Below are positions 225-64,000 of a stretch of DNA of 64,000 nt, one piece after another. The notes under the pieces were generated by a model. It made no database searches. It was given only the letters and a program-made list of their open reading frames with translations, and was not told the origin of the DNA. The stretch lies in NCBI GenBank assembly GCA_015179045.1, contig WHUZ01000068.1, forward strand, positions 186,001 through 250,000, in the 5' to 3' direction. Numbering within the stretch: position 1 is the first letter of the stretch; each line of letters starts with the position of its first letter. A program made the position numbers and the translations under genes. The stretch is from Kalaharituber pfeilii (taxonomy: Eukaryota > Ascomycota > Pezizomycetes > Pezizales > Pezizaceae).

Positions 225-286
225 CCTTCCATGGCGAACATGCTGCATGCGGGCTCACGTGACAAAAAAAACCAAAAAAAAAAAAC
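225..286 (+). mobile_element. H2 hairpin-poly(A) micro-insertion
   Basis: The insert is flanked by a 10-bp direct repeat, CGATAAGGTA (215-224 and 287-296). It starts at CCTTCCATGGCGAAC, the hairpin base, and ends in CACGTGAC followed by an interrupted A-tract. Confidence 0.85.
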
Positions 287-492
287 CGATAAGGTATTAC
301 CTGACAACCCTTTCCCATCTGGATTGAGCACTACCTCCAGAGCATTCACAGGCATTTCTGACGTTACAAACAGTTGTGTAGGGCATTCGTACTCATCGAA
401 GATAACATATGTAGGGTTCTCATAGTCTCCCAAGGCTCTCACCTGCTGTACCTTGCCCTGCCTTGGCGAGCAGCTGCATGCGGGGTCACGTG

Positions 493-524
<32 letters not shown>

Positions 525-741
525 CTGTACCGGGGTCCTCTGGGATCTGCCCTTGCATCATTTGGATATTTTTCTTTTCCCCGACATTTTTCTTCTTATA
601 CCTCTCTGCAAGCGGAAATGCTGTCTCCTCCCCAGGTGCTCCTACATTAAGCATACCCGGTTCTGCTTTACTCAGCTTTGGCCTCATTCGGGGTAATTCC
701 TCTTCCACTACTTCTTCGATTCTCATCTGTTCATCTGCCAT
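287..741 (-). pseudogene. Retroelement ORF remnant (unrecognised)
   Basis: With the inserts at 225-286 and 453-520 left out, one minus-strand frame runs from MADEQMRIEEVVEEEL (about 741) through GMLNVGAPGEETAF, then GDYENPTYVIFDEYEC and ALEVVLNPDGKGLSGN. It is acidic and has no domain I recognise. Its position downstream of the gag-like region at 2713-4880, on the same strand, suggests it belongs to the same retroelement. The 1.95 kb element at 766-2712 separates the two parts. It is broken by at least three insertions and is surely non-functional. Confidence 0.4.
453..520 (+). mobile_element. H2 hairpin-poly(A) micro-insertion
   Basis: An exact 11-bp target duplication CCTGCTGTACC (442-452 and 521-531) brackets TTGCCCTGCCTTGGCGAGC..CACGTG plus 28 A. 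The 5' end lies three bases outside the hairpin stem. It splits the minus-strand ORF remnant. Confidence 0.9.
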
Positions 742-884
742 AGCAATCAGGTTGGCCTGGCGGAACCTCTCCGGACAGGCAGATTCTGCCTGCCGCTCCC
801 GGACCTCATCAGACGATAAACTTTACGCCATGACACTGTGACACAGGTACCATTATTGTGGGGTAGGTAGATCAAATGTTGGTA

Positions 885-1096
885 CTTGTTACCAGCATTT
901 AGTGATGCAAAATGGAGGCTGGGCATAGTCCGTGCGAGAGGTCAGTGACCTGGTGTGGCAGCAGGGTATCCTCTCTTGAGAGGACAGTTTTGTAGGGAAA
1001 ACAGCAGCGTTTCTCTTGGGGGCCTGGGTCAATAGCAATGTAGCCACAGCCTTTCAACCAAGGCATGCTATTACAGCACTAAATGCTGGTAACGAG
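885..1096. mobile_element. TA-flanked MITE (ACTYGTTACCAGCATTTAG ends)
   Basis: A 212-bp element with inverted ends CTTGTTACCAGCATTTAG and CTAAATGCTGGTAACGAG, flanked by TA (883-884, 1097-1098). A related copy is at 60467-60675. TA target and size fit a Tc1/mariner-type MITE. Confidence 0.7.
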
Positions 1097-1111
1097 TAGT
1101 ATTACTTACTA

Positions 1112-2153: not shown

Positions 2154-2210
2154 TTTTTTTTTTTTGTGTTGATATCGGTTATCGCATGCCGCTCTAAGGG
2201 CTATGACGAT
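2154..2210 (-). mobile_element. H1 hairpin-poly(A) micro-insertion
   Basis: A 57-bp insert of T-tract plus GATATCGGTTATCGCATGCC..GGGCTATGACGAT lies between exact 11-bp repeats ACCTGCACCTC (2143-2153, 2211-2221). The 5' end is the hairpin base. Confidence 0.88.
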
Positions 2211-2712: not shown

Positions 2713-4880
2713 GGCCTCCACCATGCTTACATCTGCCATTATAATATCCGGTCATATTTCTTCCATCATACCCAGCTAGGGCTGTTTAAGAACTACCTCG
2801 ATTGAAGCTATCTCTTGTGGAACCAGTCCCCTCTGCATATGAGTTCCTGATGTATCACCTAGCTTAGGAGCATTTGATCTAGGGAACAACTTTGCTCTCA
2901 ATGCTCGCTGCTCTCCCTCTGGTAGTGGTGCCTGATTACAGTTCCCTGCTTTATGCCCTCATTGTCCACACCGGACACACTGAAGATCACCAATCCCCAT
3001 GGTTCTGTAATGGTTTAGCAGACCTTGTAGTGACATTGTTTCGTAATGGTTTGGCGGATCTTGTGGCGACCCTGTTCCATAATAGTTTGGCAGAACTTAG
3101 GACGACCCTGTTCCGTAATAGTTTGGCGGACCTTGTGGTGACCCTGTCATTCCAGTGACTTGTGCTGCCCTTCTCATAGGGACCAATGCATTTGAACTCA
3201 GAAGTGAAGCTACTCGTTGCAATGAATCCAACAGGCCGTGATCTGCATTGGACTGAAACCGCCTGGACCGGTCCAGGCCGGTATTCTCAGTGGCCTGGAC
3301 CGGCCTGATCCACATGAATCAGGCCAACCAGGCCAGTCCAGGCCAACCAGGCCAGTCCAGGCCAACCAGGCCAGTCCAGGCCAACCAGGCCAGTCCAGGC
3401 CAATCAGGCCGGTCCAGGCCAATCAGGCCGGGCCAGGCCATTCAGGCCGGTTCAGGCCAATTAAACGAATCACTCCACAGCTATCCAGCTGAATTGAGGC
3501 CAGCATTTACCAGATTGTTTGAGTATTTAAATGAGTAGAATCCCCCGTATGTCTAGAATTTTAAACAGCAGCGGTCTACGACTTTTGTCAAGTATGTATC
3601 ACACTTTGTATTCAAGTATATATACTAAGAAATATTTTAGAAATGATGGACCTTCCAGATAATACAACAGACTGGACTCAATTCTTCGATGATGATACCT
3701 GATGCGCAACTGTCAATTACTGATAGTGGAAATATCCAGGACTATTAAAATCTAATTTACCTGGGTTAAATTCCAAAATCGCTTAAATTTACGTAAATGG
3801 CCTGGTCGGCCTGGACTTGCCTGAATGGCCTGAACCGGCCTGATTGGCCTGATTGTTTCAGGCCGCCTGGGCCGGTCCAGGCGGCCCTCACGGCCTGGCC
3901 TGATTGTTCAGGCCAGGCCAGGCCCAGAATTTCACGGTCCAGGCCAGTCCAGGCCTCCGGTTGGCCTGTTGGATTCATTGGACTCGTTGTAGCACCTTTT
4001 CAAACCCTTGAATAACCATATTGGCTAACCCTTCCTGGGCTGTCAATACCTCCTTCTTCCAGTCCTCTGGTATCTTAGGTACAGTCAAGGTTCCCAATGC
4101 TTGGGCCTCCATCTCTGCTCCTACTGACCCTTTCTGAAAGAGAGTGATAACATCTCTCAATGCATACGGTGCTGTCAACTGGAGATGCACTCCAGTTTTC
4201 AATACTCTGTCTGTAATTCCATTTACAAACTGCTGGTTAGCATACTATCAAACGTGGTCTCCAACATCATTCTCAATTTTCTGACCTGATCCATATATTG
4301 CTCGGTACCATCTCTTCTTTGCTACAAAGTAGCTGCCTCATTCAGTGCTTTGGCAACCTCGTGTGCTTTAGAAATAGGTTGATCGGGAAATTCTTCTGCC
4401 ATAGCAGTCACTATCTCCTCATAAGATGTTCTTTGCTCAGCTGCAAGACCCTGCTACTACTCTTGGGCCTCACCAGCAAGAAAACTCTGTAGGAATATAA
4501 TCTTTGCTGTGTTCCTTGCTGCAGCCATAGGGAAAAAGGTCTCTAGTTGTGGGAAGTATAACTCAAGCATGTCTCTAAACTGAGAAATAGTTGAACCAGT
4601 CTGCCCCTCAGAAAATTTCTCAGACCGCATTATATTAAGATGCCCCCGTCTATCCTTGGTTGAGCTGGATGCGAGAGGGGTAATTCCGGAGTTGTTTCCT
4701 TTATCGTTCTGATACTTTCTTAAGCTGAGTTACTCAAGGCTGGAGTCTGAATAGGACTCACGTCCTCAGAGCTTGAACATGCACTTATTTTCATAGTACC
4801 TTCTGAAGAACTGGAGATAACCACGGCTGGCCGTACAGGACTTTGTACTCTGATGGGGTAGTCCTTTTCTGTTATCAATG
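2713..4880 (-). pseudogene. Degraded retrotransposon Gag-like gene
   Basis: Minus-strand frames, with several stops and shifts, read as Gag. From about 4640 down: FSEGQTGSTISQFRDMLELY, then AARNTAKIIFLQSFLAGEAQ, TSYEEIVTAMAEEFPDQP, MDQVRKLRMMLETTFD and, in a separate frame (4202-3975), LTAPYALRDVITLFQKGSV and LANMVIQGFEKVLQ. Near 2985-2935 a CCHC knuckle, CVRCGQ-x-GHKAGNC, follows. This order (capsid-like helices, then zinc knuckle) is that of an LTR-retrotransposon or LINE-like gag. A hAT-type element (3220-3981) splits it. No protease or RT is recognisable downstream. It is a relic. Confidence 0.55.
3220..3981. mobile_element. hAT-type element with CCAGGCC-rich arms (family G2), copy 1
   Basis: Terminal inverted repeats CAATGAATCCAACAGGCC and GGCCTGTTGGATTCATTG(G) are enclosed by an exact 8-bp duplication ACTCGTTG (3212-3219, 3982-3989), the hAT signature. 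Both arms are arrays of GGCCNNNCAGGCC units (3240-3460, 3795-3965). The core (3465-3790) is non-coding and AT-richer. A second copy at 59465-60151 has the core in the opposite orientation. Confidence 0.82.
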
Positions 4881-5282: not shown

Positions 5283-6281
5283 GGCCCCGCCCTTACTTTC
5301 GGCAGTAACTGTATCAGCCACCTTGAACTACTCACTCCTCTAGCCTTGAGTATGAACAGCTTGCTGGAGCTTATTATTCCAGCATACAATAGGCTCGGTT
5401 TTCCGACGAACCGAGTCCAGCTTTCGTCTAGAATAAGACTTCCTGGCTTTCAGCCTTTCTTTCTTACCATACTAGAAAGATCCGCTGCCTTCCTAGGACC
5501 ACCAAGTTGTGGGAGAGATCAACGAGGAAAGTTCAATGAAGAGAAACAAGAACATGAAAAGGTTTTTTTTTTTTTAAAATCACATGACCCCGCTTGCAGC
5601 TGTTCACCATGGCAGGGCAACATGAAAAGGTAAAAGGACTAGAGATCGGGACGCAAGACGAAGACCGGTTTACTATATCCTAAGAGCACAACGAAACAAC
5701 CCTAAGACTGAACAGAATAACGACCCAGTTATACTGTGACCATCCACGATGATGATCATGGGGAGAGGAGGTCCCCTCCTCTCCCCAAGAAATACTCGTA
5801 ACTTTCTGGTACCCCCTTCCCTCTTTAGTAGTCTCCTCCTCCCCAGGCCTTCATCCACCGTTGTATTTGAAGTGCCAAGATTCCCACAGCACCCTACCCA
5901 CGAAGTTTGTGGAGTTACGGTCTACCCCAGGGCGGTTTTGCGAGAGCCATAAGTCGAGTGTGCAATATGGTCTACTTTCCACTGTGCGGCGTCATATAGA
6001 TAACCCTGGTCTATCTACTCCCTTGCGGACATTTCATCGGCAACTAAGTGGCAACCAGCAAGCTGTTTTATACCGTCGAAGAGGCTAGTCAAATAGCTGT
6101 ATCTCCCGCAGGCGCACATTCGCTGCAAGCCATTTTACGCACTTTAGTAGTACCATAAAATAAGTAGGTGAAGGCGCTCAGAATTTCAGTTGAGGGTAAT
6201 GGTGCCTACTGCTACCATAAATCCAGAAAAGCCACATACTGATCCATTCAATAATGGCTAGCAAAAAAACTAGTCGTCTAA

Positions 6282-6282: not shown

Positions 6283-6312
<30 letters not shown>

Positions 6313-6352
6313 GGCACGTGACCCCGCGCGCAGCTGCTCGCCATGGCAGGGC
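6283..6352 (-). mobile_element. H2 hairpin-poly(A) micro-insertion
   Basis: Exact 11-bp duplication AGTCGTCTAAC (6272-6282, 6353-6363). The insert is a long T-tract followed by the complement of TGCCCTGCCATGGCGAGCAG..GGGGTCACGTG. Confidence 0.9.
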
Positions 6353-8533: not shown

Positions 8534-8651
8534 ACCACGGATAGTAATCAATTTCAGCTGGCGAGCTGCACCAAAGAACTGCTAAGTAGTGGTTAACGAC
8601 TTTAGGAATCTCGACAAAAGTGATCCACCTACTGCCCCTCAAGGCTTAATC

Positions 8652-9686
8652 ATGTCTTCATCGGTACTGAGGGAGAGAGAACAGGCTCTGCGGCAACAAA
8701 TCGAAGAAAATGAACGTATACAGCGAGAGATGCGAGAACAAGCTGAACGGCTTGAGAGAGAGCGCCAAAACGAGTATGCAGAGTTACAACAGGAGCAGAA
8801 GCGCATGCTAGCGGAAATGCGAAGGAAAGAGGAAGAGCAGAGAACGACTATGGAGGGACTGGAACGGCGCTACCGCGAAAAAGAGGAATCCCTGCACTTG
8901 AAGCTCCAGCTTCTCCAGAGAAACATAACACTAAACGTCTGGCCGACTGCGGAGCAGTGGGCAAGAGCTAGGGAAATGCTTGTTCCTGGAGAACGAAAGA
9001 TCCACTGTGCGATCGCCGGCAATTCAGGTTCTGGCAAATCATCCTTGGTGAATGCATTCCGAGGACTCTACAATAAAGATCCGCAGGCAGCCGAGATTGG
9101 CGTTACGGAAACAACTGAGAAAATTACCTCCTACCCCGATCTTAGTCCAGTAGCACCGCATAACTCCATTGTATGGTATGACTGTCCAGGAGCTGGCACT
9201 TTAAGTATTCCAGGGCCAGAATATTTCAATGCGCAAGGCCTCTTTATATTCGACATGGTCATCGTCGTCATAGACACTCGGGTCACAACGCAAGACATTG
9301 CAATTCTGCAACAATGCGAGTATTTCAAAATTCCATCGCTCATTGTTCGGTCCAAGGCTAATCAGCACATTCTCAACATCATGCATGAAGAACTTGGGTA
9401 CTCCTCGGATGACAGTGATGCAGAGGAGGCAGAAGATTATAATATGCTATTGGGGATGGCGAAAAGCATATTAATCAATAACACAATGGATAGCGTGAGA
9501 GAGAACTTGGAAGACGGACAGCTAAGTTCGGACCAACGGGTTTATATTGTGTCGGCCGACTGCGTCCGGAGTCTTATTTTGTTGGAGAGACAAGGGAAAA
9601 AAATTAAGAAGCCAGAAATGATCATCAATGAGCAGGAGCTGATTGAGGATCTCGTTATTGCAATTTCCGAGACACATTCTAACTAA
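8652..9686 (+). CDS. IRG-like (interferon-inducible GTPase family) protein
   Basis: A 344-residue protein. The first ATG is 8652; the frame is open 63 nt upstream without another ATG. Residues 5-95 form a charged coiled coil (REREQALRQQIEEN, QAERLERERQ). A GTPase domain follows: P-loop GNSGSGKSS near residue 122, switch/G3 DCPGAGT near 182, a hydrophobic FDMVIVVIDTR strand, and a degenerate G4-like RSKAN near 238. The order VTETT, WYDCPGAGT, FNAQGLFIFD and CEYFKIP is that of the IIGP/IRG family. Animal IRGs act on pathogen vacuoles; fungal homologues are mostly uncharacterised, so function here is inference. No transmembrane segment is evident. The acidic stretch SSDDSDAEEAED near 260 is a family-specific insert. 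The gene is intact, intron-free as read, and sits between repeat blocks. Family call fairly sure; role unknown. Confidence 0.82.
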   Translation: MSSSVLREREQALRQQIEENERIQREMREQAERLERERQNEYAELQQEQKRMLAEMRRKEEEQRTTMEGLERRYREKEESLHLKLQLLQRNITLNVWPTAEQWARAREMLVPGERKIHCAIAGNSGSGKSSLVNAFRGLYNKDPQAAEIGVTETTEKITSYPDLSPVAPHNSIVWYDCPGAGTLSIPGPEYFNAQGLFIFDMVIVVIDTRVTTQDIAILQQCEYFKIPSLIVRSKANQHILNIMHEELGYSSDDSDAEEAEDYNMLLGMAKSILINNTMDSVRENLEDGQLSSDQRVYIVSADCVRSLILLERQGKKIKKPEMIINEQELIEDLVIAISETHSN

Positions 9687-11499: not shown

Positions 11500-12955
11500 G
11501 CCTGGTGGCAGGGACGCGTTGCTCAGACCTCCATGAGGCTACGAAGTATGGGGGGCCCGGAAGGGTGCGAGGACCTGTGGATGGCCGATTTCCGGGGTGA
11601 AGGGGAGGAGGAAGAGCGGGGACGGGATTGGACAGACTGGGAAGCGAGCTGGGCGATTAAAAAAGGGGACAGATTTGGATAGGTTGCGGGTAGGATGCAG
11701 AGCAAGGTGAGCTTCGTAATGCCAGAAGGGGTTGAGAGGTATCATGGGGAGGTCCTTGCACAGAAGTTTTTTTTTTTTTTTTTTTATATATCATTACATT
11801 ATCATTTGCGCAGAAGTGGAAGTAGAGGAAGCCCAGAGAGAAAGACGGAAGAGGGAGGGAGAGAGGAGTGGGAAGCATCCATTCACTGGGCTACGAAAGG
11901 GTGGGTAGGGTGTACACGGACGGAAGCATGAACGAAAAGGAGAGGGTGGGGGGCGGCTTCTGGAAGTGGGATGGGGGCGGGGGAGAGGAGATGGGGACGG
12001 GGCAACGGTGTGGGATGGGGAGATTCGGGCATGAAGAAGGGGTTGGAAAGAGTAGCACCGGCACCAGCAACCGTGGTACTGATCTACTTGCAGGCTGCGA
12101 TTGTAGTAGTGAAAAAGGCAGGAAGCCGAGGCAAAGCCAGGACCGGAGATCTGAGGAGGGTGGTTGATCTCATTGCACAAAGGAGAAAGAGAGGTGGGGA
12201 GGTGAAGCTGATGTGGGTGAAAGCCCACACCGGCGTCGCGGGGAACGCAGCGGCCGACGTGGAAGCAAAGAAGGCGGCGAACAAGATCCGAAGATCAGTG
12301 GTGACGGCGGGAGGCCTACGGCAGAAGTGGAGAAAACTGCAGGCAGCCAAACAGTGTGAGCCGGGCAGAGGGGGAGGGGCGGTGATGAGATGGGGCAGAG
12401 GGGCAGCCACCACTTTCACAAGGCTTAGAACGGGGAAGGGGATGACGAAGGAGTGGAAGTGAAGATCGGAAAGGCGGCGGAGGGGACGGCGTGCAGGTGT
12501 GGCAAAAGGCAGACGGCAGACCACCTGGCGTTCAGGTGCGAAGAGGTGGTATATCCGGCGGGGTGGGGGGAGTGGGCAGATTTCCAGAAGAAAAAGTGGA
12601 GGGAACAGCAGGAGAACGTGGAGGAGATAGACATCCTGGATCAACTGTTCCATTCACTGAGAGCATAGGCGTAGGGTGTCGGGCAGGGGTGGGGCCGAAT
12701 CTCGGAGGGGCGGGGAGGGGGGCAAAATTTTGTTTGTAGAGGTGGCGGTGGAAGAAATGATGTAGCCATTTTTAATTGCCAAGAGGAGGTGTGGCGGGGA
12801 GGAGTCGTGAGTCTCGTATGTAGAGATGGCGGCAGAAGAGTAGATAGACATGCTTGCCTCCGAGCATCGAGGGTCTAGGCCCAGGGGCCCTGCCATGGCG
12901 AATAGCTGCAAGTGGGGTTATGTGATTTTTTTTAAAAAAAAAAAAGCTCAGACTT
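11500..12955 (+). pseudogene. 5'-truncated LINE (H2 type): RNase H and 3'UTR
   Basis: Homologous over its length to the better copy at 55560-56957. The frame opens with GGPEGCEDLWMADFRGEG and continues, after an insertion at 11768-11807, with VYTDGSMNEKERVGGGF (RNase H Asp). After a frameshift it resumes with DLRRVVDLIAQRRKRGG and LMWVKAHTGVAGNAAAD. The final block TACRCGKRQTADHLAFRC is the terminal zinc knuckle. Stop at 12668, then a GC-rich 3'UTR and the H2 hairpin with A-tail (about 12885-12952). Several shifts make it inactive. Confidence 0.8.
11768..11807 (-). mobile_element. Tail-only retro-insertion (40 bp)
   Basis: Between GCACAGAAGT (11758-11767) and GCGCAGAAGT (11808-11817) lies a T-tract plus ATATATCATTACATTATCATTT. 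On the sense strand this is the H1 tail TAATGATAT with poly(A) and no hairpin. It breaks the LINE frame. Confidence 0.75.
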
Positions 12956-13141
12956 CCGAAAGGGCGCCCAGGGGACGCGGAGGCATTCGGGGCCATGCTT
13001 GGCTGGATGGAACGGTGATTTTTCTTACTTTACCTGACCGGATAGTATGGAGACGGAATGACTTAATCTCTCTTTTTCCCTTTTCATCTCTTACTTCCAT
13101 ATTTATCTCCTATTTTCACATTTATCTCTTATGTAACTAAA

Positions 13142-13194
13142 CCGCCATAGCCCCTAGGGCGGCACGCGATTGCTGATATAAAAAAAAAAAAAAA
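13142..13194 (+). mobile_element. H1 hairpin-poly(A) insertion
   Basis: CCGCCATAGCCCCTAGGGCGGCACGCG, then TTGCTGATAT and 15 A. The preceding CTTATGTAACTAA resembles H1 LINE 3'UTRs, so the copy probably extends further 5'. Boundaries are not fixed by a duplication. Confidence 0.65.
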
Positions 13195-17290: not shown

Positions 17291-17658
17291 TCAGGCTCCT
17301 GTAAAAATGCTGTAACAGGGGTTGATTAGCTCAAGTGACAATGATAGAAAACATAGATAAAACATGGCACGGAAACACTGAGACACAGGGATCACGGATT
17401 TGATATTCACTGAGGTTATTTTTTCAAAAATGAGCAGAAGGCAAGTCCCCAGAACACTAACTAATGAGAACATCATATGCAAACGAGGACGAGTGTTTGT
17501 ACCCATGCCGTTTGCGGTTTGCTCTATGCATGCCATTTCATGTATTCCTCCATTTACTCTATGCACCTATCCCCCCTGCAACAGGCCGGTCCAGGCCGTC
17601 CAGGCTGGTCTAGGCCATTCAGGTCGCTCAAGCGACTCAGGGGTAGGATGCCTGGTTT

Positions 17659-17724
17659 TTTTTTTCTTTTTTTTTTTCTTCTATATCGTTACTTGCCTGT
17701 CGCCTTACATGCTATGGCGAGATC
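17659..17724 (-). mobile_element. H1 hairpin-poly(A) micro-insertion
   Basis: Exact 10-bp duplication TGCCTGGTTT (17649-17658, 17725-17734). The insert is a T-tract with CTTCTATATCGTTACTTGCC..ATGCTATGGCGAGATC. The hairpin stem is decayed. Confidence 0.82.
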
Positions 17725-19033: not shown

Positions 19034-19099
19034 TTTACTTTCCTTCATGTACCTTAATCTACCCTCGCCATAGCCCTTAGGGCGGCATGCGAGTACTGG

Positions 19100-19132
<33 letters not shown>
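19034..19132 (+). mobile_element. H1 LINE tail insertion
   Basis: Exact 10-bp duplication CATCAAGGAA (19024-19033, 19133-19142). The insert has 30 bp of 3'UTR (TTTACTTTCCTTCATGTACC) before the hairpin, then about 29 A. Confidence 0.88.
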
Positions 19133-20890: not shown

Positions 20891-20967
20891 GGCCCTGCCA
20901 TGGTAAATAGCTGCAAGCGGGGTTATGTAAGATATTATTTTTTTTAAAAAAAAAAAAAAAAAAAAAA
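20891..20967 (+). mobile_element. H2 hairpin-poly(A) micro-insertion
   Basis: Flanks GGGGCTTCGCACCG and GGAGCTTCGCACCG (20877-20890, 20968-20981) form a 14-bp duplication with one mismatch. The insert is GGCCCTGCCATGGTAAATAG..GGGGTTATGTAAGATATT then T/A-tracts. Confidence 0.87.
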
Positions 20968-23326: not shown

Positions 23327-23386
23327 TTATTTTTTTTTTTTTTAATATCATCACTCGCGTGCCGCCTGTGAGGCTATGGCGAGGTG
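23327..23386 (-). mobile_element. H1 hairpin-poly(A) micro-insertion in the GH43 upstream region
   Basis: Exact 12-bp duplication ACATTGGCATGA (23315-23326, 23387-23398). It is a 60-bp insert with TTAATATCATCACTCGCG..GGCTATGGCGAGGTG. It lies about 110 bp upstream of the GH43 start. Confidence 0.9.
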
Positions 23387-26604: not shown

Positions 26605-26638
<34 letters not shown>

Positions 26639-26676
26639 CCACGTTACCCCGCTTGCAGCTCCTCGCCATGGCAGGC
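26605..26676 (-). mobile_element. H2 hairpin-poly(A) micro-insertion
   Basis: Exact 11-bp duplication AAGCGCGAATA (26594-26604, 26677-26687). A T-tract of about 32 is followed by the complement of CCTGCCATGGCGAGGAGC..GGGGTAACGTGG. Confidence 0.9.
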
Positions 26677-27010: not shown

Positions 27011-28021
27011 TGATAAATAACAAGTGTATCGCTCATCATCATGTTGTCATTCAAGGCATCATTACAGTACCATGTGTGATCTCTCATCATCATCATGGCA
27101 TCATCACCATAGATACTATGTTCGGTCACCCTGACACTGTCCAAGTGGATAACCTGTCTTATTGGATAGAACCCTCTGGTCCCGACGATATCTAATAAGA
27201 CTGGTTTGACTGTTTGTACCCTAACATGGTGTGGAGTTTGGGAGTTCATGGGTTTAACCGTATATTATCGATAGGGAGGGAAATGGTAGATTAAACCAAA
27301 AAATTAACAAAAAATAATATATAATAAGGAATACCATGAGAACATGCATAATACTAGTATAATGTATCGAAGGAAAAACGTATAAAGAAATCGTGAGAAC
27401 AAGAGACCACTTTAGGAATTCCTGTTTCAATTAATTTCATTCGCCATAGCCCCTAGGGCGGCAAGCGATTAATGATATTGAAAAAGAAAAAAAAAAATGA
27501 AAAAAAATTCAATTAATTTCATGCGGAGATTTTGGGAATGAGCTACCGGAGTTTTCGGCCATTGTAGCCGACGGGATATCGCTTAGCTTACCCGATCAGC
27601 TCGCTGGCTGGCCCACTCTGCGCTGCATACTCGGCTGTATGCATGCCACTGTGATCACCTGCAGATAGTCTGGTTGCATTGCAGAACGTTGACGGCTGTC
27701 TGTTCGGGAATCCAAAACTTGCGCCAGAGCTGCTGCCAAGTTGTAACGGCGGAACGCTGCAATAGGTAGTAGTAACCGGTCAAATACGGCCCGCAAAGTC
27801 CGAGTTGACCCGTTTCTGGTATATTGCGAGCCAAGTACTTCAATTTCCGCACATCGATAGTGTCGGGCAGGATTACTAATCTATCCGAGGCGAGGATCAG
27901 CTACAGGTGCCTTATCTTCGCAGACGTGCCGGCACTGACCAGTGCATCAGTCGCTGTCCCACGGCGCATGATCTTAATGAAAACTTGGCTATGGTGAAGG
28001 GATGGTCCAGATTCTTAGGTG
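27011..28021. other. Interval without a supported gene
   Basis: Except for the insert at 27441-27507, I see no coding signal I can defend. CATCATCATCATG-like short repeats occur near 27035-27105. Confidence 0.4.
27441..27507 (+). mobile_element. H1 hairpin-only micro-insertion
   Basis: Exact 15-bp duplication TTCAATTAATTTCAT (27426-27440, 27508-27522). The insert begins with TCGCCATAGCCCCTAGGGCG, i.e. at the hairpin base, then TTAATGATATTG and an A-rich tail. Confidence 0.93.
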
Positions 28022-43975: not shown

Positions 43976-43978
<3 letters not shown>

Positions 43979-44012
<34 letters not shown>

Positions 44013-44049
44013 CATTACTCGCGTGCCGCCTGGTAGGCTATGGCGAGGT
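43979..44049 (-). mobile_element. H1 hairpin-only micro-insertion upstream of HET gene
   Basis: Exact 13-bp duplication AATAAATGTCGTT (43966-43978, 44050-44062). A T-tract of about 29, TTAATATCATTACTCGCGTG..GGCTATGGCGAGGT. It ends at the hairpin base, 49 bp before the HET start codon. Confidence 0.93.
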
Positions 44050-46093: not shown

Positions 46094-46221
46094 GTGGGAT
46101 TGGATTCAATGATTTACTGTTTGCATTATTACTTCTAATCATCTATGTTCAGAAATATTAAATTACCATCTCACAGTCCAAGATTTGAATTTTCCTCTGT
46201 CTTATTCAGAGAATCGTGTAT

Positions 46222-46289
46222 TTTTTTTTTTTCTTTTTTTTTTTCTTTTAATATCAGTACTCGCGTGCCGCCCTTAGGGCTAAGGCGAG
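46222..46289 (-). mobile_element. H1 hairpin-only micro-insertion 3' of HET gene
   Basis: ATCGTGTAT on both sides (46213-46221, 46290-46298). The insert is a T/C tract, TTAATATCAGTACTCGCGTG..AGGGCTAAGGCGAG, ending at the hairpin base. Confidence 0.85.
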
Positions 46290-52639: not shown

Positions 52640-53028
52640 AACATAGTGATCTATATTTAGGGAAGGTCCGGAAATGGTTGGAGTCCGGGAATGATAGGCT
52701 AGGCAAGACCGTGGGGATAAGGTGGCTGAGACGAAAGACCGCGCTACTGGAAGAAGGAAAAATGACCAGCTCGGTCGTGGTGTACTTGGAGGCAGCGACG
52801 GGCGTAGACAGAGTTAGGTTAGGTGGGAAATAATTGAGGACCACTCAATACGAGCCGGACAGACGGAGGAAATAGGCTGTATTGACCAGTGTGTACATTC
52901 TACCCGCACCATGTATGAGTATTGCAGGCACCACATGTATTTAGTGACGGTTAATTTTCTTTCTTTAATAAATACCTCGCCATAGCCCATACTGCGGCAT
53001 GCGAGTAATGATGTATAAAAAAAAAAAA
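52640..53028 (+). mobile_element. LINE ORF1-tail element with H1 3' end
   Basis: VRKWLESGNDRLGKTVGIRW, MTSSVVVYLEAATGVDRVRL and GGK-stop match ORF1 at 63.8 kb. After about 130 bp comes ACCTCGCCATAGCCCATAC.., TAATGATGTAT and 12 A. No ORF2. Confidence 0.62.
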
Positions 53029-53139
53029 GGTACTATTGTTTGTACATAGATGACTGCATAGGGGGATAGGAGACTGTGGAAATTGCTTAGCTGGCTGTAT
53101 GATAGATCACTATTACATTAAATCATAAGCGAGTATATA

Positions 53140-53390
53140 GGGGGGGGGAGAGAACGTTGGCGGAGGTGATGGACTGGGCGGCGGAGTAACCAGTCATATT
53201 TTCACTTTATCTCCTTATCTGTTACTTATTTTTCCGTTTTTTTTTTTTTTTTTTTTTTTTTTAATCACATAACCCCGCTTGTAGCACTTGGCCATGGCAG
53301 GGTTTATTTTTCCGTTGATAATCATTCATGTATCTAAACCCTCGCCATAGCCTGCAAGGCGGCATGCGAGTAATGATATATAAAAAAAAA
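53140..53390 (+). mobile_element. H1 LINE 3' fragment with nested H2 insert
   Basis: Exact 15-bp duplication ATAAGCGAGTATATA (53125-53139, 53391-53405). The nested micro-insertion is at 53239-53303. It ends CCTCGCCATAGCCTGCAAGG..TAATGATATAT and A-tail. Confidence 0.88.
53239..53303 (-). mobile_element. H2 hairpin-poly(A) micro-insertion, nested
   Basis: Exact 13-bp duplication TTATTTTTCCGTT (53226-53238, 53304-53316). A T-tract and the complement of CCCTGCCATGGCCAAGTGC..GGGGTTATGTGATT. Confidence 0.9.
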
Positions 53391-54179
53391 ATAAGCGAGT
53401 ATATATATTACATATAGGTACATCGAGGTACATTCATGTTCGCCGCTGGGCCAGGTGTTCGTGGCTGGGCTGGCCCCGTGAAAAACACCATATGTTTTTC
53501 ACGGGGCCGGCCGGTTCACGAATCGGCTGGCCGGTTCGCGAACCTGAAAATGTTCGTCGGTGGGCCAGAACAGTAATGAGAAGGCAGATGAGCTGGCCAA
53601 AGAGGGGGCCAGGTGCATGAGGTATGATGACCAGGCCACAGAGGGCGGGCTGCGTCAGGAGTTAGTTCGAAAAAGGGAGGAGGAGAGGGAGCGAGCGGGG
53701 TTTGGGAAGGGCAATTTTGTGAAGTGGAACAGGAGGGCACTCACAAATTACACATGCCTACGAACTGGAAAAGGCGGAGCTATGTGGAGGAGGATGATCA
53801 GTGGTGAGGAGGTGCAATGCACATGTGGAGAGGCATGGAGTGCTGAGCATGTGGTGTTCAGATGCACTGAACTGGAGCGGCCCTGGAGGAAGGACAAAGA
53901 TGGGGCACATGTCACCTGGCCCTGGCAATCCTGGGAGGACATAGAGGAGAAAGGGTGGAAGCAAGAAGGCGTGGAGGGCGACCCGGTCGAGTGCTGGTTT
54001 GCCTGCCTCGATCTGGGGTAGCCGGGGACGGAGGGCACTGGGTGCTCAAGGCGTGGATGTACATTCCGTAGTTAGTTGTTCCAAACCTGACCCCGGTATA
54101 TGGGTCCCTGCCATAGGCTGGTAGGCTGTATGCGGGGTTACGTGACTCAAGAAAAAAAAAAAAAAAAAAAAAAAAAAAA

Positions 54180-55559: not shown

Positions 55560-56957
55560 GAGGTTCGAGCGATGCAGAAGGTCAACTGGATCGCCGGAGT
55601 GGAGAGTGCGGAGACAGCTTTAGATGCGGCGCAGGCGAGGCTGGTGGCAAGGAGTATAGGGGATCCGGAGGGATGCGGGGATATCTGGACCGCGGACTTC
55701 AGGGGAGAAGGGGATGTGGAGGAGAGAGGCAGGGATTGGAGAGATTGGAGCATGGGATGGGCGATGCAGAAGAAGGACGGTTTCGAGTCGGTGGCAGGGA
55801 GGGTGCAGAGCACAGTTAGCTTCGTCATGCCGGAGGGGGTAGACGAGGTGTCATGGGGGGGGGGATGTGCGAGAACGGAGGTGGAAGAAGTGACGAGAGA
55901 AGGACGCAAAGGGGGAAGTGCGGAGGAGTAGGAGTCGTCAATCTTTTGGGCAACGCAAGGGGGGGAGGCGGTGTACACAGATGGTAGTATGAATGAGAAG
56001 GGGAGAGTGGGAGGGGGATTCTGGAAGTGGGACGGCGGGGGGGGAGAAGAAATGGGGGCGGGGGCAGCGGTGTGGGATGGGGAGGTGAGAGGGATGAGGA
56101 TGGGGATAGAGAAGGCGGTCCCAGCACCGGCGAACCTGGTCATCCTGACGGACTCACAGGCAGCAATCGCGGCGGTGAGGAAGGCGGGGAGACTGGGGAA
56201 AGCACGAACCGGAGACCTGAGGAGAGTGGTGGATGCAGTCGCGGAGAGAAAGAAAAAAGGGGGGGACGTCAAGCTGATGTGGGTGAAGGCGCACATCGGT
56301 ATCGCTGGCAACGAGGCAGCGGACGTCGAAGCGAAGAGGACGGCGGACAGGATCGGGAAGTCGGTGGTGACGGAAGGAGGGTTGCGCCAGAAGTGGAAAA
56401 AACTGCGCGCAGCGGAGAGGAGGGAGGTGGGGTACGGAGGGGGTGCAGTGATGAGGTGGGGCAGGGGGGCAGCCACTGCCTTCACCAGGTTGAGGACTGG
56501 GAAGGGGATGGGGAAGGAATGGGATATCAGAATAGGGAAGGCGGCAGAGGGGAGCAGGTGCGGGTGTGGAGAAAAGCAAACGGCGGACCACCTGGCGTTC
56601 AGGTGTGAGGAGGTAGAGTACCCGGAAGGATGGGGAAGGTGGCAGGATATTGACGAGAAGAAGTGGACGGCAGAGCAGGAGAACGGGGAGGCGGTGGATG
56701 TGCTGGGAGAGTTTTTTGGTTCGTTGAAGGTGTAGGGGGAGGGGGCGATTTTTCGTTTGTTCGAAGGTGGCGGTGGAGGAAAGTTGTAGTTATTTTAGTG
56801 CCTCGGGGAGGTGGGGCGGGGAGGGGTTGAGTTTTTCGTTTGTAGAGATGGTGGCGGAGGGGTTAGGTAGATAAGCCTGCCTCCAGACTTTGAGGGTTTA
56901 GACCCAGGGGCCCTGCCTTGGCGAACAGCTGCATGCGGGGTCACGTGAAATAAAAAA
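55560..56957 (+). pseudogene. 5'-truncated LINE (H2 type), best-preserved RNase H
   Basis: The frame 55572-55931 has IGDPEGCGDIWTADFRGEGD and STVSFVMPEGVDEVSWGG, the linker upstream of RNase H. The frame 55971-56735 is an uninterrupted RNase H with VYTDGSMNEKGRVGGGFW (Asp), VWDGEVRGMRMGIEKA (Glu), LVILTDSQAAIAAVRKAG (Asp) and LMWVKAHIGIAGNEAADV (His, Asp). It ends with CGCGEKQTADHLAFRC. Stop 56735, then a GC-rich 3'UTR, GGGTTTAGACCCAGGGGCCC, the H2 hairpin and a 7-A tail. It lacks RT and endonuclease, and a stop/shift separates linker and RNase H, so it is not autonomous. Confidence 0.85.
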
Positions 56958-56981
56958 AGGTTCGGGTATTGGAGACGTTGG

Positions 56982-57282: not shown

Positions 57283-57317
57283 TCGCCATAGCCCATAGGG
57301 CGGCAAGCGATTAATGG

Positions 57318-57349
<32 letters not shown>
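57283..57349 (+). mobile_element. H1 hairpin-only micro-insertion
   Basis: Exact 15-bp duplication TAGATCTGAGTGTTA (57268-57282, 57350-57364). It begins TCGCCATAGCCCATAGGGCG at the hairpin base, then TTAATGGTAT and 29 A. Confidence 0.94.
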
Positions 57350-59464: not shown

Positions 59465-60151
59465 CAATGAATCCAACAGGCCGTGATCTGCATTGGACCT
59501 GATTCACATGAATCAGGCCAACTAGGCAACCAGGCCGGTCCAGACCACTCAGGTCGGTCCAGATCAACCAGGCCATTTGCGTAAATTCAAGCGATTTTAG
59601 AATTTAACCCAGGTGAATTAGATTTTAATAGTTCTGGATATTTCCACTATCAGTAATTGACAGTCGCCCATTAGGTATCATCATCGAAGAAGAATTGAGT
59701 CCCGTCTTTTGTATTGTCTGGAAGGTCCGCCATTTCTATAATATTTGTTAGTAAATATAAAGTGTGATACATACTTTTTTTTTATATATATATCATTACC
59801 CGCGTGCTACCCTGTGGGCTATGGCGAGGATTTAGGTACGTGATACATACTTAACTTAAGTTATAGACCGCTGCTGTTTAAAATTCTAGATATATGGAAG
59901 ATTCTACTCATTTAAATACTCAAACAATCTGGTAACTGCTGGCTCTAATTCACCTGGATAGCTGTGGAGGGATTCGTTTAATTAGCCTGAATAGCCTGAT
60001 TAGCCTGATTGTTTCAGGCCGCCTGGGCCGGTCCAGGCTGCCCTCACGGCCTGGCGTGATTGTTCAGGCCAGAGCAGGTCCAGAATTTCACGGTCCAGGC
60101 AAGTCCAGGCCTTCTGTTGGCCTGGCCTGGCCTGGCCTGTTGGATTCATTG
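59465..60151. mobile_element. hAT-type element (family G2), copy 2, with inverted core
   Basis: Ends CAATGAATCCAACAGGCC and GGCCTGTTGGATTCATTG; both outer arms align with 3220-3981 in the same orientation. The core (about 59575-59975) aligns only in reverse complement. It contains the micro-insertion 59776-59839. The target duplication is imperfect (CTGTCA shared). Confidence 0.75.
59776..59839 (-). mobile_element. H1 hairpin-poly(A) micro-insertion
   Basis: Exact 13-bp duplication GTGATACATACTT (59763-59775, 59840-59852). It has TATATATATATCATTACCCG and GGCTATGGCGAGGATTTAGG. Confidence 0.9.
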
Positions 60152-60224
60152 CACTGTCAGAGTCGAAGGCGGTGCACTTGCAGACATTTGGCTTGATGTA
60201 GTACAACTATGCGCTGATATGTTT

Positions 60225-60279
60225 TTTTTTTTTTTTTTTTATATCATTTATCGCTTACCGCCCTGTGGGCTATGGCGAT
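60225..60279 (-). mobile_element. H1 hairpin-only micro-insertion
   Basis: Exact 12-bp duplication GCTGATATGTTT (60213-60224, 60280-60291). 55 bp of T-tract, ATATCATTTATCGCTTACCG and GGGCTATGGCGAT, ending at the hairpin base. Confidence 0.92.
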
Positions 60280-60675: not shown

Positions 60676-60677
60676 TA

Positions 60678-61830
60678 CAGATAGTGCATGGCGCTAAATC
60701 ACTAGAACTCACTACATTATTGTCATGAATTATGCTAACTACATCAGTTCTAATTGTGAGTCCGATGGAAATAACCAAAACAGACGTTATTTATAACAGA
60801 GTATTATATTACATGCAGCGAAAAGATAACAGGTTTGAGAACACGAAGCAGAAACTGGAGAGCTAGAAACCTGCAAACAAGATTACCTTTGATGAATTTC
60901 TGTATACAGTGGTGGGTGTCATGGCTACAGGAGGTATTGGTATGTAAGATGAGGATAGAGGTCAGCAAGTCTTGGGATAGGTACGTACTTAATTGCATAA
61001 CTTTATTATTTTTTTTAACTTGCATTTGACCTCTTCACAGTATCTTTGAGAATTCTCTGTGGCAGATACTTTTACTCCGTACAAAACGTTGATTTTGATA
61101 TCACACAGAGCATTTCTTAGCGCTTTTAGCATAGCGCCATCTGACACAGAAATTATGCATGTGTTACTCACCCAAGGGAAAACTAGCGAGAGGAACTTTT
61201 CTTTTTAATGCCAGCAAAAAATGCCCAGACTGTGTCTTAAGACAATACAGTAGTCCTGTAAACTATCCTGGTTAGAAAAGTGCGTCACATCCTAGAGTGA
61301 CGTGATCTCAACTATAAATTGCAACCAATAGATTTGTCCTTCGCTACTAACTTCTCAAATGTATAATATATATATATTTCGTTATTATCTTCTAATATAG
61401 AGACCTCTTTCTCCATTTACATGTATTTAACTCTTCAACTTAGAGAATTTATGTATTATTGTCTAATGTGGAATAAGATTCAGTTGCGACGTTTCAAGAT
61501 TTGGCGGTTCAGCCGCAAGCTAATGGGAGGCTCGAGAGCAGCCACCAGAACCCTCGAGACCACATGATGGGCTCGCCACAGAAAAAAGGGCAAGCCACTA
61601 GTGGGCACCACCAAGCCACAGCAGAGTCCCTCTCTAGTTGGTTTCCCGTTTGGGTGATCCCTTTCTGGTAGTCATGGGCAGGCGGCGAAGGGATGCTCAG
61701 TATATAGAAGGGGAGAGGGAGACGCTGGTACTCCCTCTCCAAGCCGCGTGAGTTGCGAAATCACCCACCCACCGACCCCGTTACCCCAGCGACTCGGGCC
61801 TCCGCGAGGGAGAGACTGGGGGGGTTATTC
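60678..61830. other. Interval without a supported gene
   Basis: Short frames only. 61650-61720 has TATATAGAAGGGGAGAGGG, a possible promoter-like stretch, but no gene follows that I can support. Confidence 0.4.
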
Positions 61831-61892
61831 GGTTTGCCCCTGCTTAGTCAGCGAAACGACTGACTAAGCATGGGCATTAGGGGCTGCAAACC
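61831..61892. other. Long two-part stem-loop
   Basis: Outer stem GGTTTGCCCC (61831-61840) pairs with GGGG (61880-61883) and CAAACC (61887-61892). Inner perfect 11-bp stem TGCTTAGTCAG (61841-61851) pairs with CTGACTAAGCA (61860-61870) around CGAAACGA. No RNA family recognised. Confidence 0.55.
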
Positions 61893-62135
61893 CCTTGAGC
61901 CGATTTCCAACCTAAAGAGCATGGATAGGACGCCTCCTCATTTGTTTTCCTTGTCTTTTTTCTGTCATGTATTCCACATAGCAATTCATGTTTGTTCGAA
62001 TCGAAGTAGCCGAGGACCATTAGCTCATTCTAATGCAATTTTTTTAATATTCTGGTATCGCTATGAGCGGGTCAGGGGGTACGGCCGACCATTGCTCACG
62101 AGCCGTGGGTCCTCTGCTGGGAGGTCACTGGGCAG

Positions 62136-62644
62136 TGTCAAAACATGACATCCGCTACCCGTATATTGCTGTTACTACTAGCCAGTAAAATATGTATTCG
62201 GACAGGGGTACTAATGCACAACTTGCGCTATGTCCGAATACATATTTTACTAGCTAGTAATAAATAAATTCTTTTCTGTTACTGTTACTAATAGATAGTT
62301 CTTTCTGACTGCTGTTTCGTCTGTTTATTGGTTAATGTTCTGTTCTTTCATTTAACATATCCATGACCTACACTACGTTGCCATTATGTTTATGAATCAT
62401 CATTCCGTGACTTCCGCACCTGCCTGATATGTTACACCTGCCTGTCTAGTCATGGTTCTGCAGTCACGTCATGCAATGCTCATCATGTATATAATCTTGA
62501 TTGTTCTGCATCTCTTTAATCAATCAGACTTATTGGACAGATCTTCTTTATTCCTACAGAGAAGCTCTCTCTTGTTTTTCCTACCTGACGAAGCCCTCCT
62601 CATTCTACGTGCGAAGCCGGAATTCCAAGGTCGACGTTAAGTCA
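62136..62644. mobile_element. Solo LTR, copy 2
   Basis: Starts TGTCAAAACATGACATCC and ends GACGTTAAGTCA; flanks GGCAG and GGCAA. It aligns with 49400-49991 but lacks part of the U3 tandem repeat and carries the foldback insert 62177-62258. Confidence 0.78.
62177..62258. mobile_element. 82-bp foldback MITE in LTR
   Basis: Perfect 21-bp arms at 62184-62204 and 62231-62251, starting AGTAAAATATGTATTCGG, around a 26-bp loop; absent from the sister LTR. Confidence 0.75.
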
Positions 62645-63050
62645 GGCAATTCGCCTCAAAGGGATACTTCGGGTTCTACTGTGTGGTGCCGTGTTGAGAG
62701 TATGTGCAAGTGCGAACGTACAAGCAAGGCGAGAACAACTGATGTCTATATGTATTAAATATAGTAGAAGGTGATCAGTAAGAACATAAAAGCAAGATAC
62801 GTAAAGAATAGTTGAAATTAAAGGAGAATTGAAGACAGGAATAACGCACCGACCACAACCTCCACAGAACGAGTTTTTGGAGCGACTTCGCAACCACAAT
62901 TGGATTACTCACGAACCTTACTTGGATCAGTAGTTTTCAGTACGCTGATTCTGGTAATCAGATTTTTATCCCAAAAAATTTTGTTTTTGCCACGTCGGCC
63001 ACACACAACGCGTCTTCTCTGACACGACGTAACTTACCCACGGAGTGGCC
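62645..63050. other. Interval without a supported gene
   Basis: Probably 5' flank or 5'UTR of the LINE ORF1 that follows; no feature recognised. Confidence 0.35.
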
Positions 63051-63054
63051 ACTG

Positions 63055-64000
63055 AGGAAATCGGTTTGTACCTGTTACTCCACTGCCACCAGCACCTACA
63101 CCTCCACCACCGCCACCACTAAACCAATCGATACCGCCACATGCTTGCCTACCATTGAACTTCAACTCCTCAGCCAAGGAATGGGCAGCCCAACTCCAAA
63201 AGACATCGCCAGCTTTTGTTTTAGACGTGATGCACAATCTTTTGTTTGAGATAGCGATAGCAGAAAGAGTAGATATTGAGGAGAGTTATGAGCTGGCACA
63301 TAAGTACTTTAAGAATATTCAACTCTCTATAAGTTCTATTTGCAAAAAGTACTATGGAGATAAGGAGTCAGACTCTACCAAACCAAACACATCTACTCCA
63401 CCTATGCGTAATGTGGATACGCAAATGGAGCGACCATCTTATGTGGAAGCAGCCGCCCAAACCTCCATATTGCAAAATGTGGCTACCCGAACAGAGCGAC
63501 CATCATATGCAGAAGCAGCTGCCCAAACCTCCACAGCTCCCTCGAAGATCAGGCCAGCCCCTCCCACTCCACCCAGTGTTAAGAAGAGAGACCCACCTGC
63601 CCGTGCCAAAGGAAAGATCACCTCTAGGGCCACTTCTACCACAACCTCGCCATCGCCCGTAGGGCGGCACGCGAGTGATGATATTAAAAAAAAAAAAAAA
63701 AAAAAAAAAACTTATATCACAAAGAGCAAGCCCCTTTTATCAGAAAAGCCAGAACTACGACCTGCCACTTCAACAATAGTAGTTCATGGAATAGCAGTGA
63801 CCAAGAGACTGGTGAATGTTCGGAAGTGGTTGGAGGGGGATAATGAATTGGGTACAAAAATCGCTGGGGCTCGATGGCTGTTGAAGCAAGAGAGGAGGAA
63901 GGGAATTGCGACTAGTTCAGTTGTTGTTTACCTGGAGGGGGCAGGTAGAACTAGTCAAATACCAGAGACTCTACGCATCGGAGGTAAGAAGTACAGATGG
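63055..64000 (+). pseudogene. LINE ORF1 (Gag-like), runs off window
   Basis: The open frame, without a visible ATG, starts PLPPAPTPPPPPPLNQ and continues FNSSAKEWAAQLQKTSPAF, LLFEIAIAERVDIEESYELA and SDSTKPNTSTPPMRN. It then has two similar units, RPSYVEAAAQTSILQNVATR and RPSYAEAAAQTSTAPSK. After the insert at 63646-63710 it reads VTKRLVNVRKWLEGDNELG, ARWLLKQERRKGIATSSVVV and LRIGGKKYRW. This is the ORF1 found truncated at 17.9, 19.4, 37.6 and 52.7 kb. It is the longest ORF1 here, interrupted once. Confidence 0.72.
63646..63710 (+). mobile_element. H1 hairpin-only micro-insertion in ORF1
   Basis: CTCGCCATCGCCCGTAGGGC..GCGAGTGATGATATT plus 25 A. Flanks ACTTCTACCACAA and ACTTATATCACAA match at 11 of 13 positions, a diverged duplication. 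Confidence 0.82.

What the first reader, a model, noticed from the sequence alone, without database searches (positions are those of the whole stretch)
225..63710. Dispersed hairpin-plus-poly(A) micro-retrocopies whose 5' ends fall at the hairpin base
Seen: dozens of 40-70 bp inserts consist of a hairpin, a 6-12 nt tail and poly(A). About 30 have visible 8-15 bp direct flanks, for example 453-520, 5563-5618, 27441-27507, 43979-44049, 57283-57349 and 60225-60279. Many start within 0-3 nt of the same point, the hairpin base. Known: LINE copies are 5'-truncated at variable points by target-primed reverse transcription. Inference: a repeated 5' end points either to a discrete small RNA (a minimal SINE of about 35-45 nt) or to a strong RT stop at the hairpin. 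Either would be an unusually small retroposed unit.
Basis: partly seen in the sequence, partly recalled or inferred. Interest (0 to 1): 0.92.

Follow-up and report, generated by a model that had tools for sequence, protein, structure and literature searches.

The report
Hairpin-only stubs of LINE retrotransposons
This genome, likely that of a desert truffle or a close relative, holds thousands of copies of the predicted hairpin that ends its LINE jumping genes, and many of them are only about 40 letters long with nearly the same starting point, likely because a trimmed RNA stub rather than a long RNA was copied.

Summary
The window has 48 hairpin-tail-poly(A) copies; 17 carry an exact target-site duplication within 130 nt, and 15 of these start within -1 to +3 nt of the hairpin's 5' base. 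Outside the window the peak is weaker by this test: 10 of 22 bounded copies in 200 kb start at -4 to +6 (p about 0.02 against the least favourable null). Genome-wide counts, which need no duplications, show a one-nucleotide cliff in family B: in one subfamily 322 copies reach mid-stem, 290 the closing base pair, and 85 carry the parent's next base; in a second, 206 of 558 lack it. The copies are not an independent family. They are the 3' ends of two lineages of LINEs encoding reverse transcriptase and RNase H. Covariation supports the hairpin. An enzyme moving from poly(A) meets the near side of the hairpin first, yet the ends lie at its far side and tail-only insertions are rare, so a simple stall is disfavoured. 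Junctions show scarce microhomology but do not settle the mechanism. The likeliest reading is copying of a hairpin-poly(A) RNA fragment that begins at the hairpin; drop-off just after the hairpin is the main rival. RNA data are needed.

The parts
453..520 (+). family B hairpin-only copy with poly(A) 493-520; left repeat 441-452
   Evidence: 12-bp exact duplication, related empty site
225..285 (+). family B hairpin-only copy (diverged 5' stem), poly(A) 264-285
   Evidence: 10-bp duplication
5563..5618 (-). family B hairpin-only copy, poly(A) at the low end
   Evidence: 13-bp duplication
6284..6352 (-). family B hairpin-only copy
   Evidence: 11-bp duplication
20891..20967 (+). family B hairpin-only copy with extra T run before poly(A)
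   Evidence: 11-bp duplication
26607..26676 (-). family B hairpin-only copy
   Evidence: 11-bp duplication
53237..53303 (-). family B-prime hairpin-only copy
   Evidence: 13-bp duplication
2154..2210 (-). family A hairpin-only copy
   Evidence: 11-bp duplication
17656..17724 (-). family A hairpin-only copy
   Evidence: 10-bp duplication
23330..23386 (-). family A hairpin-only copy
   Evidence: 12-bp duplication
27441..27507 (+). family A hairpin-only copy
   Evidence: 15-bp duplication
43977..44049 (-). family A hairpin-only copy
   Evidence: 13-bp duplication
46221..46289 (-). family A hairpin-only copy
   Evidence: 9-bp duplication
57283..57349 (+). family A hairpin-only copy
   Evidence: 15-bp duplication
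60222..60279 (-). family A hairpin-only copy
   Evidence: 12-bp duplication
19034..19132 (+). longer family A copy (5' end 30 nt upstream of the hairpin): counter-example
   Evidence: 10-bp duplication
59775..59839 (-). longer family A copy (11 nt upstream), carried in a duplicated repeat: counter-example
   Evidence: 13-bp duplication; same event in L011 and L022
55971..56735 (+). RNase H end of the family B parent LINE
   Evidence: Pfam RNase_H E 3.6e-11; a close relative, L031, also carries RVT_1
56911..56958 (+). 3'-terminal hairpin, tail and poly(A) of that LINE
   Evidence: same end at 17 of the 19 other LINE loci fetched; not in L040, and not at the cut-short LINE of L047
10642..11283 (+). 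RNase H fragment of a likely family A parent LINE; family A tail and poly(A) at 13141-13194
   Evidence: Pfam RNase_H E 3.1e-10; distant 12-bp duplication, body 2496 nt, in a test whose control rate is 25 of 511

Best explanation
These inserts are poly(A)-tailed copies of the last ~40 nt of LINE retrotransposons, the best-preserved of them flanked by 9-15-bp target-site duplications, and their shared 5' end at the base of the LINE's predicted 3'-terminal hairpin likely arises because the LINE reverse transcriptase copies an RNA fragment that would begin at that base. Shown here: the same hairpin, tail and poly(A) end LINEs that encode reverse transcriptase and RNase H; short copies are insertions with duplications; in family B the copies stop at the closing base pair of the stem far more often than at the bases before it, genome-wide. 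Inferred: the LINE protein binds the hairpin; a 5'-to-3' exonuclease (or a cut) removes the rest of the RNA up to the bound hairpin; the remaining hairpin-poly(A) stub is primed at a nick in the target, copied to its end, sometimes gains one or a few untemplated nucleotides, and is joined without base-pairing.
For: Parentage: hairpin B + poly(A) ends 17 of 19 other loci fetched by the window LINE's RNase H protein; family A tails follow RNase-H-like frames by 104-164 nt at four places, three in L018 and one in L041; Pfam confirms RNase_H behind one of two tails tested and weakly (below its cut-off) behind the other, and RVT_1 in both lineages. Cliff: 322 copies contain TGCCTTGG..., 290 extend to GCCC (205 + 85), only 85 carry the parent's next base; in B-prime 206 of 558 lack it. 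Position: 10 of 22 bounded copies in coordinate-picked stretches, 15 of 16 scored in the window, at -4 to +6. Tail-only insertions are rare: 3 repeat-flanked of 105 hairpin-less poly(A) runs, two of them in one minisatellite, control 1. Microhomology is scarce: 1 of 18 base-ending B junctions. Structure: 96.8% of cells paired against 91.0% shuffled, 24 cells changed on both sides against 7.5. A (CTCGC and ATCGC types), B and B-prime copies show the same end, which points to shared machinery.
Against: No RNA was seen; a 40-nt fragment is inferred from DNA alone. Outside the window 12 of 22 bounded copies end elsewhere, and for family A only 6 of 15 are at the base. Base-ending B junctions are 8 direct, 9 with extra nucleotides, 1 microhomology. 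In cell assays with the LINE Nimb-2_DR extra nucleotides go with truncated rather than full-length inserts, and truncated L1 inserts are 54% direct (PMC4245944, passages), so junctions do not tell a stub from drop-off. 8 of the 18 come from loci fetched by similarity, 7 of them with the copy at 453-520 as query. T precedes the closing G in 133 of 205 non-parental copies of one subfamily but 76 of 206 in the other, so no single rule covers both. Two covariation measures are no better than shuffles (pairs changed on both sides, 3 against 2.0; further pair types, 8 against 7.6), and 17 of the 24 two-sided changes are at one pair. Longer copies exist: 14 distant duplications among 65 copies examined (about 3 expected).
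Confidence: 0.45

Rival explanations
The 5' end then marks the enzyme's footprint, not an RNA end.
For: Explains an end at the closing base pair in several subfamilies and the rarity of ends before it. Specific binding of a 3' stem-loop by a LINE protein is shown for zebrafish elements (PMC4176376, passages). Extra nucleotides in 9 of 18 junctions fit a truncation product.
Against: Base-ending B junctions show almost no microhomology (1 of 18), which truncated L1 inserts often use (PMC4245944, passages). This does not exclude it.
Confidence: 0.3
2. A true minimal SINE: a small RNA gene with its own promoter makes hairpin-poly(A) RNA that the LINE enzyme mobilises.
For: One subfamily has a base (T at -2) unlike the LINE's G in 133 of 205 non-parental copies, as if from its own source; T at -3 is near chance (37 of 133).
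Against: The T is not enriched in the second subfamily (76 of 206). Copies follow several LINE subfamilies. No tRNA or Rfam match in the window, and 38-47 nt leaves little room for an internal promoter (inference).
Confidence: 0.12
3. A stall of reverse transcriptase at the hairpin, as in ordinary structure-induced pausing.
For: Template switching by the Magnaporthe MGL enzyme at GCC*A/U sites was ascribed to hairpin pausing (PMC2104539, section 9). A few ends do lie inside the hairpin (5 of 52).
Against: Most ends are on the far side of the hairpin; stalls should end on the near side, and such copies are rare. The hairpins contain GCC|A, yet none of the 52 mapped ends lies there. Family A has no evident stem directly upstream that could block exit (inference from the sequences; not folded).
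Confidence: 0.06
4. Ordinary LINE truncation; the peak is mostly an artefact of which copies were looked at.
For: The window is more extreme than the rest (15 of 16 against 10 of 22); long copies with variable 5' ends exist; bounded copies are about a third of all.
Against: Genome-wide counts that use no duplications show the cliff in two family B subfamilies; even the stretches outside the window exceed the most generous falling distribution (p about 0.02).
Confidence: 0.07

Closest known systems
5'-truncated LINE copies made by target-primed reverse transcription (L1, ZfL2-1, Nimb-2_DR; PMC4245944, passages)
   Same: Poly(A) or LINE 3' tail, target-site duplications (9-15 bp here, as long as those of L1 and Nimb-2_DR), LINE 3' end retained.
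   Different: Known truncations vary in place; a review gives 100-1,000 bp as the range of truncated copies (PMC3747384, passages). Here one class ends at one structural point and is only about 40 nt.
Stringent-type LINEs with a 3' stem-loop (ZfL2-1, ZfL2-2, UnaL2; PMC4176376, passages), and Tad1 LINE/SINE pairs in fungi as stated in PMC5135761 (passages)
   Same: A conserved 3'-terminal hairpin on the LINE RNA.
   Different: In those systems, as far as the passages go, the hairpin is a recognition signal at the end of the element; here it is often the whole copy. Binding was not tested here.
SINEs sharing a LINE 3' tail (Mg-SINE and others; recalled, and named in PMC5135761, passages)
   Same: Short, non-coding, poly(A), duplications, LINE-like 3' end.
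   Different: No separate head region was recognised and no promoter is known; the unit is only the LINE tail.
MGL/WEIRD/Mg-SINE chimeras of Magnaporthe (PMC2104539, abstract and section 9)
   Same: Repeated 5' breakpoints in a fungal LINE, with hairpins nearby.
   Different: Their LINE parts are 230-5461 nt and breakpoints follow GCC*A/U; here about 40 nt and the breakpoint is the stem base.

Membership tests
LINE retrocopies (target-primed reverse transcription) | 3' end identical to that of an autonomous LINE, with poly(A) | tested here: met
   Hairpin + poly(A) at the 3' end of 17 of 19 LINE loci other than the window's own; family A tails behind RNase-H-like frames at four places.
LINE retrocopies (target-primed reverse transcription) | target-site duplications of variable length | tested here: met
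   52 kept events, 9-15 bp, most often 13; a related site without the insert.
LINE retrocopies (target-primed reverse transcription) | 5' truncation points spread without a structural peak | tested here: not met
   Cliff 290 to 85 in one nucleotide in B-TTGG, 558 to 352 in B-prime; 10 of 22 at -4 to +6 outside the window. Copies with other ends coexist.
SINE | head derived from a tRNA, 5S or 7SL RNA | tested here: not met
   No tRNA (bacterial setting) and no Rfam family at gathering score in the window.
SINE | own RNA polymerase III promoter | not tested
   No promoter scan was made; the usual unit is 38-47 nt of LINE tail.
Stringent-type LINE | conserved 3' stem-loop | tested here: met
   52 family A hairpins: 96.8% of cells paired, 24 cells changed on both sides, shuffles 7.5; two of five measures no better than shuffles.
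Stringent-type LINE | stem-loop needed for mobilisation | not testable with these tools
   Needs a retrotransposition assay.
Tad1 clade | reverse transcriptase groups with Tad1 in a tree | not tested
   No tree built; RT and RNase H present; some relatives also carry endonuclease domains. The clade name is from recall.

The most novel reading that the evidence does not exclude
A fungal LINE lineage habitually retroposes a stub of its own RNA: an exonuclease-resistant hairpin-poly(A) fragment, protected by the LINE protein, serves as template and makes a dispersed element of about 40 nt, smaller than any SINE that I know of.
Probability: 0.37. Interest if true: 0.8.

Novelty: new variant of a known kind. 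Interest (0 to 1): 0.58.

Why it matters
It turns a genome's insertions into a footprint of what the LINE enzyme held when it copied. If the template is a trimmed stub, RNA decay and LINE mobilisation compete for the same molecule, and 'dead on arrival' copies would come from RNA ends as well as from enzyme failure. That is directly testable with 5'-end sequencing. If drop-off is right instead, the data would mean that a LINE enzyme loses its grip just when its anchor is copied, which bears on the old question of why LINE copies are truncated. Either way, insertions of some tens of nucleotides would likely be missed by usual repeat annotation (inference). The density of 62 copies of either family in 200 kb suggests about 24,000 in this genome, hairpin-only and longer together.

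Tried and rejected
An independent tRNA-, 5S- or 7SL-derived SINE was rejected for lack of any tRNA or Rfam match in the window. A described RNA in the parent 3' end was sought; the single hit was noise (E 2.4 against a bacterial small RNA). The Magnaporthe GCC*A/U rule was compared and does not fit the mapped ends. A general rule of adding one T was tested and failed in the second subfamily. One bounded event was dropped before counting (L018, minus strand, position 576: its 'repeat' is the neighbouring hairpin), leaving 52 of 53, 38 of them in the window and coordinate-picked stretches; L011, L022 and the window copy at 59775-59839 are one ancestral insertion in a duplicated repeat; the last was merged with L022, so 16 of the window's 17 were scored, and tests used n minus 1 for L011/L022. 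The L008 chimera (d = 11) is counted among the 18 base-ending junctions because 10 of its 11 leading nucleotides are not parental; 5 of 23 bounded B copies (two inside the hairpin, three upstream) were left out. A first placing of the hairpin base was faulty and was replaced. The copy finder is fuzzy: four of the 110 calls in window and stretches align poorly to any hairpin consensus, three of them in the stretches. The stretches lie at fixed coordinates, but on contigs whose names I had from the hairpin search. Family A covariation used 52 of 54 distinct hairpins with a readable tail; I left two out by hand. Template-jump dimers were looked for: one poly(A)-hairpin tandem (L018) and one chimera (L008) are suggestive but could be nested insertions. 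Papers were searched for Kalaharituber and its repeats, very short SINEs, LINE 5' junctions, Tad1 and fungal SINEs, and truffle retrotransposons (listings seen); no listing showed a hairpin-only LINE copy of this size, but most subscription journals are outside that library. After re-checking I lowered the stub from 0.5 to 0.45 and its novel case from 0.4 to 0.37, and raised drop-off to 0.3 and ordinary truncation to 0.07, because the junction paper does not separate the two models as I first wrote and because the peak is weaker outside the window.
Full report
What was checked. The window is a 64-kb piece of a 78-Mb genome in 360 contigs. The best named protein match of its LINE (L031 frame) is Kalaharituber pfeilii (93% identity over 55% of the query, 77% over 53%), a desert truffle of the Pezizales, so the host is likely that species or a close relative.

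The repeat. Two related 3' ends recur. Family A reads about CTCGCC-ATAGCCC-ATA-GGGC-GGCATGCGAG followed by TAATGATATT and poly(A). Family B reads about GCCCTGCCATGGCGAACAGCTGCAAGCGGGGT followed by TACGTGA and poly(A), with a variant B-prime (ACCCTGCCATGGCCACGTGCTACAAGCGGGGT). With poly(A) as an anchor the window has 48 copies and twenty 10-kb stretches at fixed coordinates have 62; 5 of the 20 stretches have none. Four of these 110 calls align poorly and may be false. The stretches' density would mean about 24,000 copies, short and long together. An exact family A core pattern alone has 3,307 matches and its reversed control none.

They are insertions. Exact direct repeats of 8 bp or more within 120 nt flank 26 of 65 family A and 14 of 38 family B copies; with flanks taken from other copies the rate is 3.4% and 1.6%. 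In the larger set of 163 copies, 158 with enough flank, 54 have a repeat of 9 bp or more within 130 nt, giving 53 events, of which 52 were kept. For the copy at 453-520 a related site on C298 lacks the insert.

They are LINE ends. The window's own LINE frame at 55971-56735 has an RNase H domain and is followed at 56911-56958 by hairpin B and poly(A). The protein found 150 matches, a lower bound. Of 20 loci fetched, one is the window itself; 17 of the other 19 have hairpin B in the same place. L040 has none by my search, and in L047 the LINE is cut short and the nearby hairpin is a different variant in other surroundings. Identities among the matches run from 100% down to about 50%, many near 52%; one of the latter, in L014, ends in B-prime. 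Family A tails follow RNase-H-like frames by 104-164 nt at three places in L018 and one in L041. Two of these four were put to Pfam: RNase_H at 5e-14 for one and 2.5e-4, below its cut-off, for the other; RVT_1 was found in both lineages, whose reverse transcriptases are 31% identical over 400 aligned positions. Relatives elsewhere also carry endonuclease domains.

The hairpin. Folding gives a two-part stem in all six variants tried, though only three of the six have z-scores below -1.8. The stronger evidence is the alignment of 52 distinct family A hairpins: 96.8% of cells are paired against 91.0% in shuffles, 24 cells changed on both sides against 7.5, and every slid register is far worse. 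Two of the five measures do not beat the shuffles, and 17 of the 24 two-sided changes are at the outermost pair, which switches between C-G (33) and A-U (17) and so may be one old change.

The 5' ends by duplication. Relative to the first stem base, 15 of 16 scored window copies lie at -4 to +6, but only 10 of 22 in the coordinate-picked stretches (family A 6 of 15, family B 4 of 7), 4 of 5 around LINE loci and 6 of 9 in loci fetched with the hairpin. In the stretches 4 lie deeper inside the hairpin and 8 further upstream. Any distribution that only falls with distance from poly(A) can put at most 24% in that interval; for the stretches p is 0.015 (n=21, one duplicate event removed) to 0.04, for window and stretches pooled (25 of 37) 2e-8.

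The 5' ends by counts. These use no duplications. In the B-TTGG subfamily 322 copies contain the stem from TGCC on. Of these, 290 continue to the closing G, 205 with A, C or T next and 85 with the parent's G. So five bases of stem lose 32 copies and the next base at least 205. In B-prime 206 have A, C or T and 352 the parent's G. Thus at least 71% and 37% of the copies that reach the closing pair do not continue into the parent sequence seen here; by chance some of the G's are not parental either. I could not make such counts for family A, whose parents vary.

Why not a stall. Reverse transcription runs from poly(A) into the 3' arm of the hairpin. A block there would leave the tail only. Among 105 poly(A) runs without a recognised hairpin, three have repeats within 140 nt, two of these in one minisatellite; the control gave one. 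A few diverged tail-only candidates were seen by eye, for example at 11767-11785 on the minus strand. They are few beside the hairpin-base class, so the enzyme has usually copied the entire hairpin.

Stub or drop-off. Two mechanisms put the end there: the RNA itself ends there, or the enzyme lets go once its anchor is copied. In family B, where the parent is known, 18 of 23 bounded copies end at the base, counting one chimera; 8 are joined directly, 9 have 1-10 extra nucleotides and 1 has a single base of microhomology. Ten of the 18 come from the window and stretches (6 direct, 3 extra, 1 microhomology). [quoted passage not shown] The junctions therefore lean neither way firmly; only the lack of microhomology is notable. 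One copy (L008) fuses the start of one hairpin variant to the start of another, as if the enzyme had reached an RNA end and jumped. I keep the stub as the likelier model because an RNA end gives a sharp stop without further assumptions about the enzyme, at 0.45 against 0.3.

A result that fits neither neatly. In B-TTGG a T precedes the closing G in 133 of 205 non-parental copies, T at the next place is near chance (37 of 133), and in B-prime T is 76 of 206. A source RNA with its own first base, or an enzyme habit limited to one LINE, could explain it. Five of the 133 lie in one array on C304.

What is known. A 3' stem-loop bound by the LINE protein and needed for mobilisation is established for zebrafish LINEs (PMC4176376, passages), and one is reported for Tad1 LINE/SINE pairs in fungi (PMC5135761, passages). 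Repeated breakpoints in a fungal LINE are known from Magnaporthe, with another rule and much longer parts (PMC2104539, abstract and section 9). The searches listed under Tried and rejected showed no hairpin-only class of about 40 nt.

Verdict. The finding is real, strongest for family B, and the window overstates it. It is a new variant of LINE retrocopying, not a new kind of element, and its mechanism is open between two testable models.

Noticed in passing
minus-strand copies in L019 (about 627-760), L025 (about 8982-9100) and L003: Three family A copies with duplications are 100-105 nt long, as if a second preferred 5' end lies near an upstream CCCGC/GCGGG stem.
   Followed up: partly
G000:C304:137551-137941: Five B-TTGG hairpin starts lie 90-94 nt apart in one direction: a tandem or concatemer of hairpin and poly(A)? 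The letters could not be fetched.
   Followed up: partly
G000:C298:71400-71444: Two hairpin matches overlap by 3 nt, which suggests a jump from one hairpin template into another. The letters could not be fetched.
   Followed up: partly
L018 minus strand, about 9350-9450: Two family A hairpins in tandem, the second starting at the end of the first one's poly(A).
   Followed up: partly
window 59775-59839, L011:8898, L022 minus: The same family A insertion, with the same duplication, sits in three copies of another repeat that multiplied after the insertion.
   Followed up: partly
window 53016-53391 and L025 minus: Two neighbouring family A copies recur in L025, with up to 750 nt of surroundings at 98% identity: a larger recent duplication.
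   Followed up: no
window 8589-9686: Open frame with an interferon-inducible GTPase-like domain (Pfam IIGP, E 5e-19).
   Followed up: no
window 21404-23102, minus strand: Pieces of a glycosyl hydrolase family 43 gene with a fungal cellulose-binding domain.
   Followed up: no
window 48209-48889: Open frame with an OTT_1508-like deaminase domain.
   Followed up: no
window 13900-14900: AT-rich block; the surrounding 4-kb bin has G+C 0.374. Possibly repeat-induced mutation; not tested.
   Followed up: no
window 3240-3970: Dense CAGGCC/GGCCTG repeats flanking an AT-richer core, seen by eye.
   Followed up: no
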